Shown piece after piece: positions 4,615-53,547 of a DNA stretch of 64,000 nucleotides. Within the stretch, counting starts at the first letter, position 1. Each line of letters opens with the position of its first letter. The stretch comes from an uncultured Desulfatiglans sp. (GTDB lineage Bacteria; Desulfobacterota; DSM-4660; Desulfatiglandales; Desulfatiglandaceae), in the NCBI GenBank assembly GCA_900498135.1, contig LR026961.1:1929325-1993324 (forward strand). Reading direction: 5' to 3'. The position numbers and the translations under genes were made by a program. The notes under the pieces were generated by a model. The model did no database searches and was not told where the DNA came from. It worked only from the letters and a program-made list of their open reading frames with translations.

Positions 4615-4784
4615 TCATCGATCCGGCGGAGCGCCGGTCCGGCCGTGAATCAACGGAGGCGCCTGTCCGCTGCAAGAGGCCTTCTTCCCAGGCAAAACCG
4701 TGATGCGGAATTTCGACGCATTGGATCGAAAAGGTGGTCGATCGCTGCCGGGGCATCCTTTCTCTGGCTATGCCGAGAGTCCCC

Positions 4785-4950
4785 ATCCCGAAATGACTTG
4801 CCGGTACAACCCAAGTTCTCACTCGGAACAGAAAATTTTTTGCCGATATCAAGGAAATCAAGCGTTTGCTCGGAGGCGACCTGTAGCCCGCGGCGCAAAC
4901 AAACGTGCGACCGAGGCAGAGATTGACGAAAAAGACCATTGCCGGATGGA
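4785..4950 (+). repeat. Dispersed intergenic repeat, copy A (core only)
   Basis: This stretch aligns with reverse-complemented copy C at 31 kb. Shared blocks include ATATCAAGGAAATCAA (copy C: ATACCAAGGAAATCAA), GGAGGCGACCTG and AAAAAGACCATT, followed by CCGGATGGA at the right end. It lacks the extra GC-rich hairpin module present in copies C to F. It lies between rsmI and yraN. A spurious minus-strand frame of 122 codons crosses it and should not be called as a gene. Confidence 0.75.
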
Positions 4951-4952
4951 AT

Positions 4953-19170: not shown

Positions 19171-19314
19171 ATGGCTCTCATCGGGACAAGGTGTTTGTCG
19201 CCAGGGTCGGGGTCCATCCGTGGGGCCGCCCGTGGGGCGGCTTACCGGCTGCCTCTGCGAAAGCGAGGGCTTCCCTCGATACGGGCAAAAAGGGGCCTGC
19301 ATCAAAAGGGTTGA

Positions 19315-19428
19315 AGAAACGGGGACCCACCGCAAGGCGTTGGGGCTGGACACCCGTTGGGTGTGAAACAAGATGTTCTTTCCGGATGGGAGAAGAGGTT
19401 GTGCGGGACGATCTTTTTGGATGGATAA
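19315..19428 (-). repeat. Dispersed intergenic repeat, copy B (partial)
   Basis: This copy lies between pilN and pilO and matches only one end of the family. It includes GTGTGAAACAAGATG, the CTTTCCGGATGG block and the hairpin at about 19327-19345, where GCGGTGGG faces CCCAACGC on the minus strand. The core with the GGCGACCTGCAGG palindrome is missing. It interrupts an otherwise compact operon. Confidence 0.55.
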
Positions 19429-30920: not shown

Positions 30921-30934
30921 CTTTTTTTTGCTTC

Positions 30935-31206
30935 CATCCAGAAATGGTCTTTTTGGCCCATCTCGCCGTCAATCTGCACGTTCGCTTGTGCGGCGACTGC
31001 AGGTCGCCTCCGCGGAAACGTTTGATTTCCTTGGTATTGGCCAAAAATCCTCATTTCCGGATGGAGAACCGGGTTCTACCGGAAATTATCGGCCAAACCG
31101 GGACCCGCCCCGCAGGGGTGGGACTGAGCGCGCGCAGTGTGTGAAGAAATATCCTCATCTCCGGATTGGAAACCGGGTTCTACCGCGAAATCATTTCAGG
31201 ATGGAG
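30935..31206 (-). repeat. Dispersed intergenic repeat, copy C
   Basis: This copy has both the core (GGCGACTGCAGGTCGCC near 30992-31008, then TTGATTTCCTTGGTATTGGC) and the hairpin module (ACCCGCCCCGCAGGGGTGGG near 31100-31120, then GTGTGAAGAAATATCC). A second CCGGATTGGAAACCGGG end block closes it at 31206. It lies between rlmD and the rpsU promoter. Confidence 0.8.
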
Positions 31207-33687: not shown

Positions 33688-33910
33688 CTCATCCGGAAAG
33701 GGTCCTTTTGGCCAATCTCGGCGTCGATCCGCATGGTTGCTTAGGCGTCGACCTGCAGACCGCCTCCGCCCGAACGCTCGATTTTCTTGGTATCGGCAGA
33801 GCCGGGACCCGCTCCGAACGGGCGGGGCCGAACACGTGAAGGGTGTGAAGAAAAACTCCCCTTTCCGGATCGGAAGCAGGGTTGTGCCGGGAAACCATTT
33901 CCGCATGGAC
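33688..33910 (-). repeat. Dispersed intergenic repeat, copy D
   Basis: This copy includes GGTCCTTTTGGCCAATCTCG, the core with GTCGACCTGCAG, TTTTCTTGGTATCGGC and the hairpin GGACCCGCTCCGAACGGGCG near 33807-33826. GTGTGAAGAAAAACTCCCC and a CCGGATCGG end block follow. It is more diverged than copies C, E and F. The rest of 33645-34308 holds no credible gene. Confidence 0.75.
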
Positions 33911-36015: not shown

Positions 36016-36071
36016 GCCGCCCCGCATCTTCGACCGCAATACCGGGCCGGGCCTTTTTCCTGAGTGGTATC

Positions 36072-36342
36072 CATCCGGGAATGTTTTTCCGGTTCGACCC
36101 GGTTTCCAATCCGGAAATTGAGGATGTTTGTTCACACCCTTCGCGTGCTCAGTCCTACCCTTCCAGGGTGGATCCCGCTTTCTTCACACCCTTCAGGTGC
36201 CCCGTCCCACCCCTGCGAGGCGGGCCCCGGTTCTGGCAAGATCGATGAAATCTGGCCTTTGCGCGGCGGCCTGCAGGTCGCCGCACAAGCAAACGTGCAG
36301 GCTAACGCCGAAATTGGCCAAAAAGACCATTTCCGGCTGGAT
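36072..36342 (+). repeat. Dispersed intergenic repeat, copy E
   Basis: A full-length copy in plus orientation. The left end has CCGGTTTCCAATCCGGAAAT, followed by two diverged TTCACACCCTTC hairpin units (about 36129-36225), then the palindromic core at 36263-36284 and the right end GACCATTTCCGGCTGGA. It lies 57 bases after the reductase gene. The stretch 36016-36495 has no gene. Confidence 0.8.
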
Positions 36343-36495: not shown

Positions 36496-37674
36496 ATGAC
36501 TGCCACCGAACTCATCAACACCCCTCTCAAGTATCTCGACAAGGCGTTAGGCGGATTGCGGCAACTGGGGCTGCTGCCCGAAAAGCCGAACGAGGCGCCG
36601 ATCGTTGCTCTGATCAGTCAGATCAGCGACCTGGACGAAGAAAAGGCCGTGGCTGTCGCGAGGACCTTGAGCCACAGTTCGGTCTTCAACCAGGTGGTCC
36701 GCGAACAAATCACCCTGATGAAGGTGGGTGAGCGCTACGAAAAGATCACCTCGGCCTTTGACAGCATTCGGGATGATGCGAAAGCGATGGTGGACCAGCT
36801 GGAAGACGGACGTATTTCCACCATGGAAAGGATTCAGAATGCCTGGATGAAGGTGACCCGGGGCAGCATCCCGAGCCGGTTCGAGGAGATCAAGGAGATC
36901 TACCTCGAGGTGACTGCGGACACCAAGGATCAGATCGAACGCGAGCACCGGATTCTCGAGGCCTACCAGGATTTTCGCGGGGCCCTGAAAGAGTCACAGG
37001 TCATGGCTTTTCAGATCCTGAAAAAGGCGGAGGAGGCCGTGGCCGGCAGCAAGGCCGGGCTCGAAGAGGCATCCCGCTCGCTCGAGGCCTACACGGAGGG
37101 CGACCGGGAGCAGATCGCCCGGCTGGAACTCGGACGTGACGAGCGTCTGCGTGAGCTCCAGGAGCAGGACAAGCGCTACCAGATTGCCAAGGACCTCGCG
37201 GAGAACCTGTCGGTGAGTTACAACACGACGGAGGTCGTGATGGCCAGGCTGGTCCAGTCGACCTCTGTAAAGGAGCGTGTCTACTCCCAGGCGGTGTCGT
37301 TTTTCGGCACGAACGAAACCGTCTTCACGGCCCTGAACGCCTCTTTCACGAGCATGCAGGGCCTGCACGAGAGCACCCGCACGCTGGAAGCCATGAAAGA
37401 GGGCATCAACAAGGGCCTGGAGACCATCGCGGAGGTGGGCGGAAAAGTCCAGGAAGAGGCGCTGCGCGCGGGCTACGGCCCGACGCTCAAGGCCGAATCC
37501 GTCAAAGCCCTTGTCGCCGCCGTGATCAGCTTCCAGGAGAAATCCCACAGCCTTATCAACGAGATGCGCGAGTTGGCGACACGCAACGAAAAAGAGATCG
37601 CGGAGGCCGTCGAAGAGGGCAAACGCCGTATGGTCGAACTCATGCAAGCGGGGCCGGCGCTGAGCCATGCCTGA
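36496..37674 (+). CDS. Coiled-coil protein, TelA-like in appearance, function unknown
   Basis: The 392-residue product has no signal peptide or membrane helix. It is almost entirely helical, with heptad-like Glu/Leu/Arg stretches from about residue 75 to 220. Short regions recall TelA/KlaA-type toxic-anion-resistance proteins (an observation of style, not a firm match). A Shine-Dalgarno AAGGAGA precedes the ATG. It overlaps the next gene by eight bases and is the first gene of a 36-41 kb module. Confidence 0.75.
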   Translation: MTATELINTPLKYLDKALGGLRQLGLLPEKPNEAPIVALISQISDLDEEKAVAVARTLSHSSVFNQVVREQITLMKVGERYEKITSAFDSIRDDAKAMVDQLEDGRISTMERIQNAWMKVTRGSIPSRFEEIKEIYLEVTADTKDQIEREHRILEAYQDFRGALKESQVMAFQILKKAEEAVAGSKAGLEEASRSLEAYTEGDREQIARLELGRDERLRELQEQDKRYQIAKDLAENLSVSYNTTEVVMARLVQSTSVKERVYSQAVSFFGTNETVFTALNASFTSMQGLHESTRTLEAMKEGINKGLETIAEVGGKVQEEALRAGYGPTLKAESVKALVAAVISFQEKSHSLINEMRELATRNEKEIAEAVEEGKRRMVELMQAGPALSHA

Positions 37675-38578
37675 ACAGAATGGGTCGAAGCAAGATTTTT
37701 CCGAAGTCCTGCTGGCCATGGATGTGGTGGACACGCTGCGCCATGAGCGGGCGCTGGTCGAGAGGGAACTGCGGTCAGAGGAAAGCGAAAAGGCGCTGAT
37801 CGAGAAGCTTCGAAAAATCTACGCCGGGCAGGGCATCGAGGTTTCCGACGATACGCTGCTCGAGGGGGTTCGGGCCCTGCGCGAGGAGCGCTTCACGTAT
37901 CGCCCGCCCGAGCCCGGCCTCAAAACCATGCTTGCCCGTCTGTACGTCCGCAGGGGACGTTGGGTCAAACGGATCGGGATCGTGCTCCTGTTGATCCTGG
38001 CGCTTTGGGGGGGGTATCATTTTCTTTACGCCGGGCCATCGGAACGGGATAAAGCCCGCATCTCCAAAGAGGTCGGCGAGCTGGGGCCCGATGTCGTCAA
38101 AGACGCAATCGAACCCGGCGCGCGGGTGAAGGCAGAGGCCATCTACACGCAGGCTCTTTCGGCTGTCCGCAGCGGGGATTCCGATGCCGCCCGTGACGCC
38201 CTCGAGGCCTTGAAAGGCATCCACAGCCTGATCCTCATGGAATTTACCCTGCAGGTCGTTTCCCGCCCCGGGACCCCGAGCGGCGTCTGGCGGCACCCGG
38301 TCGATAACCCTGCAGGCCGAAACTATTACCTCATCGTAGAGGCGGTCACGGTTGACGGGAAACGGCTGGCTCTGCCGGTCACCTCCGAGGAGGACGGCAA
38401 GGTCGCCGTCGTAAAAGAGTGGGGGCTCCGCGTCCCCGCCGAAATCTATGAACAGATCAGGCGGGACAAGGCGGAGGACGGGATCGTTGACAGGCCAAAG
38501 GTCGGGACCAAGAAGCGCGGTTTCATCACTCCGGAATACGTCGTGCCGACCAGCGGCGGCGCTATCACGCAATGGTAA
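37667..38578 (+). CDS. Membrane-anchored protein, DUF6384-like
   Basis: The 303-residue product starts with a cytoplasmic helical part (SEVLLAMDVVDTLRHERALV) followed by one membrane helix (IGIVLLLILALWGGYHFLY, about residue 105-123) and a periplasmic domain with NYYLIVEAVTVDGKRLALPV. The LAMDVVDTLRH motif is what I associate with DUF6384 proteins; that name is from memory. It is coupled to its neighbours: overlap upstream, 10 bases to the next start. Confidence 0.7.
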   Translation: MPEQNGSKQDFSEVLLAMDVVDTLRHERALVERELRSEESEKALIEKLRKIYAGQGIEVSDDTLLEGVRALREERFTYRPPEPGLKTMLARLYVRRGRWVKRIGIVLLLILALWGGYHFLYAGPSERDKARISKEVGELGPDVVKDAIEPGARVKAEAIYTQALSAVRSGDSDAARDALEALKGIHSLILMEFTLQVVSRPGTPSGVWRHPVDNPAGRNYYLIVEAVTVDGKRLALPVTSEEDGKVAVVKEWGLRVPAEIYEQIRRDKAEDGIVDRPKVGTKKRGFITPEYVVPTSGGAITQW

Positions 38579-38588
38579 TGGGGATGCG

Positions 38589-40001
38589 ATGAGATATGGC
38601 AGGGACACGCTCGGTGTCATCGAGCAGCACCTGTCGGGTGCACAGGCACGGGCGGACGAGATCAGCGGGCGGTTGGAGGCCTTGAACCGGCGTCTGGCAG
38701 CCACCCGTGCCGGGATGGCCGAAGAAGCCCGCCGTCTGGCGAAGTTCCGCCTGGACGAACTGGCTGCGAATCAGGTCATTGCGCACCTGGATCGAACCGG
38801 CCGGACGGTGGTCGAACTGCTCGACCGCCGTGCCGGCGCCTTGCAGGACATGGAAAAATCCATCTCCGACTCGTTGAAAAGGCAGAACGAACTGGCTGCG
38901 TCGCGGGCGGAAAGCGTGCGGCTGAGGGACGATCTGCTGAAGGCGCTCGATGATGCAGCGGCAGGGGTCAAGGCGGAACTGAGCGCGCAGGAAGCTTACC
39001 TGGCGCAGGAAAAGCGTGCGGCGGAGGCCTCTGCCAGGGTTGCGCGGGCGAGGGAGAAGGCGGAGCAGGCCAATGCCGACCGTGCCGAGAAGGGGAGACC
39101 TTACGAAGAGGACCCTCTGTTCATGTATCTCTGGCAGTGCCGGTTCCTCACACCCGAATACAAAGCGGGTCCGCTGACCAGGACCCTCGATGGCTGGGTG
39201 GCGAAGATGATCCGTTTTGACGAGGCCCGCAGGAATTATTACATGCTGACAAATCTGCCCGTGCATCTCGAGGCCCATGCGGAACGGCAGGAAGCCATTG
39301 CGGCCGAGGAGGAGCGGAAACTGCGGGATATGGAAGCCAGGGCCCTCGAAGGCGCCGGCTTCGCTCAACGCAGGGCGGCGCTGGAGGCGGGCGAGGCGGC
39401 CCAGGACAAGATCGAGAACGAAATCGAGGAAGAGGAAAAGAAATACGAGACCCTGTTGCAGGAACGACAGGCCTTCTCAGCCGGGGCCGATGCCTTGTTT
39501 CAAGAGGCTGTGCGGCTTCAGGTTGCAGAGATCACGAAGGGGTCGATTGCGGACCTCTACCTGGCGGCCAAGATGACCCCGAGGCCGGATGATGACATGA
39601 TCGTCAACCGGATTCGCGATCTTCAGGAGGAGGAGAAGAAGATCGCCGCCGAGATGCGGCAGGTCCAGGAGGAGTCAGGAAGGAGCCAGGAGGCTTTTCG
39701 GGAAATGGAGGAACTACGGCGAAGGTTCAGGCAGAACCGGTATGATTCGGGTCACTCCTATTTCCCCGGAGGGTTTGACCTTGGAGGCTTGCTTGGCATG
39801 CTGCTGCGGGGTGCCGCATCGGGCGGGGACGTGTGGGATCGTATCCGCCGCGAACAGCAGTTCCGGAAACCACGGACGCCGGAGAATTTCGGAGGCGGCG
39901 TGTTTCCCCGAGGCTTCCGAAGAGGAACGGGGCCGGAAAGAGGTTCGAGCGGCCGCGGCGGGTTTGGTGGCGGCGGTTTCCGGACGGGGGGCCGGATGTG
40001 A
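38589..40001 (+). CDS. Large coiled-coil protein with Gly/Arg-rich tail
   Basis: The 470-residue product starts MRYGRDTLGVIEQHLSG. Long charged helices (residues about 15-190 and 230-390) surround a central segment PLFMYLWQCRFLTPEYKAG. The tail after about residue 430 is Gly/Arg-rich (SSGRGGFGGGGFRTGGRM). No membrane segment is evident. Upstream in-frame codons overlapping the previous gene are rejected. It likely assembles with the two preceding products. Confidence 0.72.
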   Translation: MRYGRDTLGVIEQHLSGAQARADEISGRLEALNRRLAATRAGMAEEARRLAKFRLDELAANQVIAHLDRTGRTVVELLDRRAGALQDMEKSISDSLKRQNELAASRAESVRLRDDLLKALDDAAAGVKAELSAQEAYLAQEKRAAEASARVARAREKAEQANADRAEKGRPYEEDPLFMYLWQCRFLTPEYKAGPLTRTLDGWVAKMIRFDEARRNYYMLTNLPVHLEAHAERQEAIAAEEERKLRDMEARALEGAGFAQRRAALEAGEAAQDKIENEIEEEEKKYETLLQERQAFSAGADALFQEAVRLQVAEITKGSIADLYLAAKMTPRPDDDMIVNRIRDLQEEEKKIAAEMRQVQEESGRSQEAFREMEELRRRFRQNRYDSGHSYFPGGFDLGGLLGMLLRGAASGGDVWDRIRREQQFRKPRTPENFGGGVFPRGFRRGTGPERGSSGRGGFGGGGFRTGGRM

Positions 40002-40241
40002 GGAGACGGTGGGCCCCGTGGACGGACGTTGAACTGTGCTCATCGGATGCCCTTTGCACATCTCCTTCAGAGCGATGCAACGGCATGGACGGTTCATCCC
40101 AAGGCATTCCGCGAACCGAACCTCGGGACAGAGTTTAACATAACGACCTGTTTTTTTTAAGCGTTCTTTCAAGGTAGCACAACCTGATCGACTGTTTTGG
40201 CGGTGGAGGTTCTAAACATCCGCAATGGGAGGGACGACATC

Positions 40242-41012
40242 GTGAATATCATGGAACTGCTTGGGGCAATGATGCAGCCGGGAGTGAATTCTGCCGCTGG
40301 CCAGCGCTTGCAGCACACGCTCGGCTCAAGTGGCTCGGGGTCTTCGGAGGGGCTGCTTTCCTCTCTGTTTGGCGGAGGCGGCTCGGGCGGCGGCATAGGG
40401 GGTATGCTCGGTGATATCCTGCAGGAGGCGGGGCAGGCGGTCGGGGGGAAGAAGAACCTCGCTGTCGGGGGAATCGGCGCCCTGGCAGGCGCATTGCTCG
40501 GTGGGGGCAAACGCTCCATGGGCGGGGCCGTGGGAGGAGGCTTGATGGCGCTCCTCGGCGCGCTGGCCTTTTCGGCGCTGAAAAAGGCCGGGCAGCCGCA
40601 GGCGGAGGTCCCCCTCGGGTTGAGGACGCCTGCTGAGCCGCAGGAGGAGAAGAGGCTGGAGGAGAATGCCGGGCTCGTTTTGCAGGCGATGATCAATGCT
40701 GCAAAGGCCGATGGGGAGATCGACCAGGGCGAGGTGCAGCGGATCGTGGGGAAGCTCAGTGAGATGGGGATTGCAGAGGAGGCCAAGGCTTTTCTGAACG
40801 TCGAGATGCAGAAACCCATGGACACGGAAACCCTGATCCGGGCAGGCGCAGGACGGCCGGAGCTGGCGGCGCAGCTCTACATCGCCTCGCTCCTGGCCAT
40901 CAAGGTCGACACGCCGGCGGAGGAAGCCTACGTCAGGAACCTTGGTGAGGGGCTCGGGCTTCAGCCGGAAGTGATGAAACATTTGGAGGCTGCTGTCGGC
41001 CTGAACCGATAG
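40242..41012 (+). CDS. DUF533/TerB-like protein (YebE family)
   Basis: The 256-residue product has a glycine-rich N-terminal half with possible membrane segments (LAVGGIGALAGALLGGGKRS and AVGGGLMALLGALAFSALK). A TerB-like helical domain follows: QAMINAAKADGEIDQGEVQR, then LYIASLLAIKVDTPAEEAYV. DUF533 proteins such as YebE respond to envelope stress in other bacteria. A GTG start at 40242 is chosen because GGAGG lies nine bases upstream. It is part of the 36-41 kb module. Confidence 0.8.
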   Translation: MNIMELLGAMMQPGVNSAAGQRLQHTLGSSGSGSSEGLLSSLFGGGGSGGGIGGMLGDILQEAGQAVGGKKNLAVGGIGALAGALLGGGKRSMGGAVGGGLMALLGALAFSALKKAGQPQAEVPLGLRTPAEPQEEKRLEENAGLVLQAMINAAKADGEIDQGEVQRIVGKLSEMGIAEEAKAFLNVEMQKPMDTETLIRAGAGRPELAAQLYIASLLAIKVDTPAEEAYVRNLGEGLGLQPEVMKHLEAAVGLNR

Positions 41013-41060: not shown

Positions 41061-41330
41061 CGGGGAAGTTATTTCCCGGTAGAAGCCAGTTTCCAATCCG
41101 GAAATGAGGATATTTCTTCACACCCTTCGGGTGCTCAGTCCCACCGCTTCGCGGCGGGTCCCGGTTTCTTCACACCCTTCGGGTGCTCAGTCCCACCGCT
41201 TCGCGGCGGGTCCGTGTTTGGCTAATAATAAGAAGATCAGACATTTGTGCGAAAGAGGCCTGCAGGTCACCGCACAAGCAAACGGGCAGATTGACGCCGA
41301 GATTGGCCGGAAAGACCATTTTCGGACGAA
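41061..41330 (+). repeat. Dispersed intergenic repeat, copy F
   Basis: A full-length plus-orientation copy between the DUF533 gene and the BON/LysM gene. It has the CCAATCCGGAAATGAGGAT left block, two near-identical 52-base hairpin units (from 41113 and 41165), the AGGCCTGCAGGTCACCGCAC core near 41257 and the right end AAAGACCATTTTCGGA. No gene lies in 41013-41380. Confidence 0.85.
41113..41213 (+). repeat. Tandem 52-base units inside repeat copy F
   Basis: Two units start TTTCTTCACACCCTTCGGGT and are almost identical. Each holds a hairpin CACCC-TTC-GGGTG and a longer hairpin CCCACCGC-TTC-GCGGCGGG (first at 41140-41158). Copy E has the same duplication, more diverged. Confidence 0.85.
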
Positions 41331-53403: not shown

Positions 53404-53476
53404 AAAAGAAAAACCCGAAGTGGTGCGTAGGCTCATAACAAGCCTTCCGGTCCTCGCGGATACCGGCCACTTCGGG
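53404..53476 (-). terminator. Structured terminator abutting a ribosome-binding site
   Basis: On the minus strand CCCGAAGTGG and CCACTTCGGG form a ten-base outer stem enclosing two smaller hairpins (CCGGT/ACCGG and AGGCT/AGCCT). TTTTTCTTTTAG follows. The tail runs straight into the AGGGAGGT of the 57-residue gene. It therefore sits at the 5' end of the accessory-int run and may act as an attenuator. Confidence 0.65.
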
Positions 53477-53547
53477 CGATATGTTCCCAGAAATACAAAA
53501 TGCCATTGACGGATGGCCCTCCGATTATGAATTTACGCGCATCCATC

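What the first reader, a model, noticed from the sequence alone, without database searches (positions are those of the whole stretch)
41113..41213. Hairpin inside the repeats keeps its stem while its sequence changes
The same hairpin position reads CCCACCGC-TTC-GCGGCGGG in copy F, CTACCCT-TCC-AGGGTGG in copy E, CCCACCCC-TGC-GGGGCGGG in copy C (minus strand) and CCCAACGC-CTT-GCGGTGGG in copy B. Several base pairs differ by compensatory changes, which points to selection on RNA or cruciform structure. The palindrome at 36263-36284 is a second structured part.
Basis: seen in the sequence. Interest (0 to 1): 0.72.

Follow-up and report, generated by a model that had tools for sequence, protein, structure and literature searches.

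The report
Mobile DNA repeat carrying hairpin cassettes
The hairpins are 52-base cassettes, present in zero to three copies, inside a small non-coding mobile DNA repeat found in hundreds of copies in an uncultured Desulfobacteraceae-like genome; the pairing is kept between genera, but nothing suggests that it is a working RNA.

Summary
The quoted hairpins are real. They lie in a 52-bp unit (U) inside a dispersed modular element: H (59 bp) - U(0-3) - T (114 bp); copy F is H-U-U-T at 41064-41328. The element is a MITE: terminal repeats GTnTCCATCCGG...CCGGATGGAAAC, 6-bp target duplications, three clean empty sites in a sister species, and a full-length partner IS (ISNCY transposase, intact 455-aa ORF) with the same ends and duplication length. 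At least 244 right ends and 143 units were counted genome-wide. Architecture matches pneumococcal BOX and Porphyromonas BrickBuilt.

The covariation claim is partly right. Within the genus only one base pair per hairpin alternates between two complementary states; other pairs decay without compensation, and old shared copies diverge faster than their flanks. Between genera pairing is kept: at two pairs left free in the search, 17/17 distinct units are complementary. G-T and A-C mispairs are equally frequent in every module, so no strand behaves like a selected RNA; a DNA-level cause is favoured. In other genera the unit also occurs at other positions, inverted, and outside this scaffold, so it behaves like an independent cassette of unknown mover. 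RAYT-type transposases were tested and not linked.

The parts
41064..41328 (+). copy F, whole element, architecture H-U-U-T; degraded left end
   Evidence: nhmmer module parse, sequence
41116..41167 (+). copy F unit 1 (hairpin 1 at 41121-41133, hairpin 2 at 41140-41158)
   Evidence: unit register
41168..41219 (+). copy F unit 2 (hairpin 1 at 41173-41185, hairpin 2 at 41192-41210), 50/52 identical to unit 1
41220..41328 (+). copy F tail module T with central palindrome GGCCTGCAGGTC
36070..36341 (+). copy E, H-U-U-T; includes the palindrome 36263-36284 (part of T)
33690..33909 (-). copy D, H-U-T, shared with sister species G001
30932..31205 (-). copy C, H-U-H-T mosaic, site shared with G001
19178..19367 (-). 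copy B, degraded U-T
4783..4952 (+). copy A, H-T without a hairpin unit

Best explanation
A BOX-like composite MITE. The scaffold (H+T) is a palindromic non-autonomous transposon of about 173 bp with ends GTnTCCATCC...GGATGGAAAC. It is moved in trans by the DDE transposase of a 1.69-kb ISNCY-type insertion sequence that has the same ends and gives the same 6-bp duplication at TAnnTA-like targets (ends, duplications, empty sites and partner are shown; trans-mobilisation is inferred). In this genus a 52-bp double-hairpin cassette sits at the H/T junction in 0-3 tandem copies and was spread with the scaffold; its number changes at a fixed site (shown at one orthologous site). After insertion, copies decay without visible constraint. 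The paired changes arise in the source copies between lineages and act at the DNA level: either the folded DNA is needed for spread, or the arms are corrected against each other during replication (inferred; these two are not separated here). The minus-strand loops are mostly GNA triloops closed by C-G, the kind known to make very stable DNA mini-hairpins.
For: Modular architecture, 40 HT, 27 HUT, 19 HUUT, 2 HUUUT in 601 kb sampled. 6-bp duplications: 13/55 exact and 19/55 with at least 5/6, against a shuffled mean of 1.3 and maximum of 6 in 1000 (examples). Clean empty sites at 1113647, 1173312 and 1180426 in G001. Partner IS: TIR GTTTCCATCCGGAAA, duplication TAAATA/TAAATA at L211, TAATTA/TAATTA at the relative in G016 (L200); transposase NF033593 at 439-450 bits against a cut-off of 325. 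Unit number differs at shared site 2135689 (1 in G000, 2 in G001). 116 of 141 multi-module copies are intergenic although 73.5% of random positions are genic. Scaffold present in 33 of 41 family genomes. Mispair symmetry and faster-than-flank decay. GNA loop stability: PMC4686876.
Against: No transposition assay. Only three IS copies against hundreds of MITEs, and G001 gave no match to this transposase, so movement may have stopped or used another enzyme there. Homology between MITE and IS beyond the ends is short (about 25-40 bp). Copy F itself has no clean empty site in G001 (32 nt remain) and a worn left end. A conserved A.C mismatch at 28-40 (a G.U on the minus strand) could hint at a minus-strand RNA. 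The mispair test sees mostly post-insertion decay, so it cannot exclude RNA selection acting only on source copies. The GNA-loop point rests mainly on one T/G alternation.
Confidence: 0.8

Rival explanations
1. The hairpin units are REP/BIME-like palindromes spread by a REP-associated tyrosine transposase (Y1/RAYT) through single-stranded hairpins, and the MITE is only a carrier.
For: Two small hairpins joined by a conserved linker CTCAGTCC; a conserved mismatch; the unit occurs at several positions, in both orientations and outside the scaffold; Y1 genes are common in the family.
Against: No unit near any of 62 Y1/RAYT loci, including many from genomes that carry the unit. No GTAG or CGTC tag at the hairpin foot (sequence; tags as defined in PMC3733652).
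Confidence: 0.12
2. The stems stay paired because arms of palindromes are corrected against each other during replication (template switching), without selection for a structure. This concerns only why pairing is kept; it is compatible with the MITE reading.
For: Mispairs show no strand preference; paired changes affect inner stems of T as well as U; individual copies decay freely.
Against: Conserved linker, closing C-G pair and A.C mismatch across genera suggest that more than arm-to-arm correction is at work; such a process should also remove the A.C mismatch.
Confidence: 0.3
3. The element is a selected non-coding or cis-regulatory RNA.
For: Strong folding of both strands (z -3.3 and -2.4); cross-genus complementarity; intergenic position.
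Against: G-T equals A-C in all modules; no Rfam match in the element; no orientation rule relative to genes (tandem gaps: 19 codirectional, 31 opposite); older shared copies diverge faster than flanks.
Confidence: 0.07

Closest known systems
BOX elements of Streptococcus pneumoniae and S. suis (PMC3049150)
   Same: Composite intergenic element: left module, a variable number of tandem internal stem-loop modules, right module; terminal repeats, target duplications, an IS in the same genome with similar ends; the same internal module shared by different flanking modules in S. suis
   Different: Unrelated host phylum; module sequences were not compared here; partner is an ISNCY transposon; the internal unit also occurs outside any such scaffold in other genera
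BrickBuilt MITE of Porphyromonas gingivalis (PMC4596501)
   Same: A minisatellite inside a MITE, flanked by leader and tail subunits, intergenic
   Different: 23-bp repeat instead of a 52-bp double hairpin; 19 copies in one strain instead of hundreds
REP/BIME palindromes (PMC3733652)
   Same: Short G+C-rich hairpins in high copy, in tandem and mixed orientation
   Different: No GTAG/CGTC tag; no tyrosine transposase gene flanked by the unit among 62 loci
ISNCY-type insertion sequences (NCBIfam NF033593; for the IS1202 group see PMC10132070)
   Same: The partner IS passes the NF033593 cut-off
   Different: The 6-bp duplication at TAnnTA is not among the lengths given for the IS1202 group (3-5, >15 or 0 bp); the subgroup was not resolved

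Membership tests
MITE | terminal inverted repeats | tested here: met
   GTnTCCATCCGG...CCGGATGGAAAC in most of 75 full copies
MITE | target site duplications and empty sites | tested here: met
   6 bp, 19/55 with at least 5/6 vs shuffled mean 1.3; three empty sites
MITE | shares ends with an autonomous element in the same genome | tested here: met
   ISNCY IS at L110, L211, L214
MITE | no conserved protein-coding capacity | not tested
   Not scanned for conserved frames; a 52-nt unit in 0-3 copies would shift any frame (inference)
MITE | mobilisation in trans by the partner transposase | not testable with these tools
   Needs an assay
BOX element | boxA/boxB/boxC sequence models | not tested
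   Models not held; compared by architecture only
BOX element | A-B(n)-C modular layout with variable tandem inner module | tested here: met
   H-U(0-3)-T; unit number differs at a shared site
REP/BIME | GTAG or CGTC tetranucleotide at one end of the palindrome | tested here: not met
   Unit consensus CTTCACACCCTTCGGGTGCTCAGTCCCACCGCTTCGCGGCGGGTCCCGGTTT
REP/BIME | association with a RAYT gene | tested here: not met
   No unit near 62 Y1/RAYT loci; not every Y1 gene of every genome was seen
Structured RNA family | match to an Rfam model | tested here: not met
Structured RNA family | strand-specific tolerance of G-U pairs | tested here: not met
   GT/AC 56/62, 169/156, 56/52, 34/23
ISNCY transposase (partner IS) | score above the NF033593 cut-off | tested here: met
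   438.9, 445.8 and 449.8 bits vs 325

The most novel reading that the evidence does not exclude
The 52-57-bp double-hairpin cassette is itself a mobile DNA element: it enters different dispersed repeats at TTC-like junctions, in either orientation, and multiplies in tandem, moved by an unidentified enzyme that reads single-stranded hairpins with GNA triloops, so that the pairing is kept while the letters change.
Probability: 0.25. Interest if true: 0.65.

Novelty: new variant of a known kind. Interest (0 to 1): 0.42.

Why it matters
It shows BOX-like modular MITEs in a distant phylum and names a candidate transposase, so the question of how tandem hairpin modules enter and multiply inside MITEs can be tested in one system. 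It also gives a cheap control (equal G-T and A-C mispairs) against reading a hairpin repeat as an RNA from a few copies.

Tried and rejected
RNA reading: Rfam scans, mispair asymmetry, tree-based covariation test. In one search the consensus-structure routine failed on the 145 worn T copies, and with only 25 far scaffolds the test had little power (one near-stem pair); its raw GT/AC count there was biased by the fold and was replaced by a strand-symmetric pair set. REP/RAYT reading: 62 Y1 loci scanned; a worn T copy near one RAYT gene (L068) looks like a chance insertion. The idea that double units arise by local duplication: unit 1 and unit 2 of HUUT copies are no more alike than random units (0.81 vs 0.80), so most were spread as two-unit elements. 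MAFFT displays misplace the gap; the junctions were read by eye from the printed sequences.

Full report
What was checked. The quoted hairpins are present: copy F at 41140-41158 with a second unit behind it, copy E near 36152-36180, copy C on the minus strand and copy B on the minus strand. The palindrome 36263-36284 is also there. Copy F folds better than all 200 shuffles on the plus strand and better than 198 of 200 on the minus strand.

What it is. A search of the window's own genome (one contig of 4,801,105 bases) with copy F gave 49 matches, with 40 of 390 first-look candidates scored, and the right end alone occurs 244 times within 3 mismatches against 0 for the reversed control. In 601 kb fetched around copies, profile searches split the element into a head H (59 bp), a hairpin unit U (52 bp) and a tail T (114 bp). 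The commonest full arrangements are H-T (40), H-U-T (27), H-U-U-T (19) and H-U-U-U-T (2), with tandem mosaics; U was never found away from H or T in these stretches. The unit core occurs 143 times in this genome and 141 times in the sister species G001, with 0 control matches. By its nearest named relatives the genome belongs to an uncultured Desulfobacteraceae-like lineage.

It is a MITE. The ends are GTnTCCATCCGG...CCGGATGGAAAC. Six bases outside the left end match the six outside the right end exactly in 13 of 55 copies and in at least five of six in 19, against a shuffled mean of 1.3 and a maximum of 6 in 1000 shuffles; the target resembles TAnnTA. Three copies are absent from the orthologous place in G001, with a single target copy there, for example GAATTC(G) at 1113647 and TCCTTA(G) at 1173312, the latter with one base different in G001. 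Of the multi-module copies 116 of 141 lie outside predicted genes although 73.5% of random positions lie inside (genes were called with a simple codon score).

A full-length partner exists. A scan for unattached ends found an inverted pair 1.68 kb apart at 2157346/2159027. Between them is a DDE transposase gene, broken in this copy; two further copies in the genome have an intact 455-aa frame that passes the ISNCY model cut-off (439 and 446 bits vs 325). Its ends are GTTTCCATCCGGAAA..., and it is flanked by TAAATA/TAAATA at L211; a relative in genome G016 is flanked by TAATTA/TAATTA. That this transposase moves the MITE is inferred. G001 carries the elements in comparable number but gave no match to this transposase.

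The hairpin unit. In 107 distinct units from the genus the two stems are nearly invariant apart from one two-state pair each (9-15 and 31-37) and the middle loop base of each (12 and 34, T or G). Other stem pairs carry mostly single uncompensated changes. A test that redistributes the inferred changes along a tree finds 31-37 significant (E 0.0017) and 9-15 not (E 0.29), each with about one switch. Stem and non-stem sites decay at similar rates (0.071 and 0.085). Four older copies shared with G001 are 75-87% identical while nearly all their flanks are 92-97% identical (one flank 73%); a young shared copy is 98%. So individual copies are not visibly constrained. The flanks include coding sequence, which weakens this comparison somewhat.

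Between genera the pairing is kept. The pattern used to find units elsewhere left positions 30, 31, 37 and 38 free. Seventeen distinct far units are complementary at both pairs in all 17 cases: T-A or C-G at 30-38, and G-C, A-T or C-G at 31-37 (shuffle P 0.0016 and below 0.00005; related genomes make these values optimistic). One further hit, in G017, is mispaired at 31-37. The scaffold behaves likewise: GGCGACCTGCAGGTCGCC here is GGCGTACTnnAGTACGCC in other genera, and GTTTCC/GGAAAC becomes GTGTCC/GGACAC in one genus.

RNA or DNA. If one strand were selected as RNA, G-U pairs on that strand should be tolerated more than the A-C mispairs that are G-U on the other strand. Counts are equal: U 56/62, T 169/156, H 56/52, far scaffolds 34/23. 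No Rfam family matches the element, and the element has no fixed orientation relative to genes. This favours a DNA-level cause. The minus-strand loops are mostly G-N-A closed by C-G (plus-strand loops TTC and TGC make up 87 and 84 of 107), which is the sequence of very stable DNA mini-hairpins (PMC4686876); this is suggestive only. An A.C mismatch at 28-40 is conserved across genera and is a G.U on the minus strand, which is the best remaining hint for RNA.

The unit as a cassette. In G018 and G049 the unit sits inside TTTCCAATTC|AGAAATG, in G005, G022 and G026 it is inverted inside GATCAAGG|AAATCAAGG, in G057 it occurs in this scaffold and outside it, and in G009, G020 and G037 it lies outside the scaffold. 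Left junctions usually read TTC followed by TTCGCAC or TTTGCAC. The unit number differs at one orthologous site (one in G000, two in G001). No unit lies near any of 62 Y1/RAYT genes, so the mover, if there is one, is unknown.

Comparison. BOX elements of pneumococci have the same A-B(n)-C layout, terminal repeats, duplications and an IS with similar ends, and in S. suis the same inner module occurs in two scaffolds (PMC3049150). BrickBuilt is a MITE with an inner minisatellite (PMC4596501). This element works like those; kinship by sequence was not tested.

Verdict. A new family of BOX-like composite MITEs with a named candidate transposase.

Noticed in passing
window 53409-53479, minus strand: Match to the Rfam c4-2 RNA family (45.6 bits, gathering 41).
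   Followed up: no
window 36496-41012: Gene run with a protein without Pfam match, a DUF6384 protein and a DUF533 protein; the first has close relatives in Alpha- and Gammaproteobacteria, Planctomycetota and Nitrospirae.
   Followed up: no
L024 (G000 1173312-1173536): An H-U-T copy absent from G001 is inserted directly before the ribosome site of a gene (TAAGGAGATTCCGCCATG), so it may alter its expression.
   Followed up: no
L150, L153, L169, L284, L286: A second kind of hairpin pair, AAACCGGGGACCC..GGGGAGTCC..GGACAAAT, sits in the same scaffold at GATCAAGG in G018 and G049, perhaps a distant relative of the unit.
   Followed up: partly
L270, L285, L287: In G037 and G057 the unit is inserted next to AAGGGGTC-like heptamer repeats.
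   Followed up: partly
L064, L065, L066: Three IS200-like Y1 transposase genes (154 aa) with nearly equal scores in G000; no unit nearby.
   Followed up: partly
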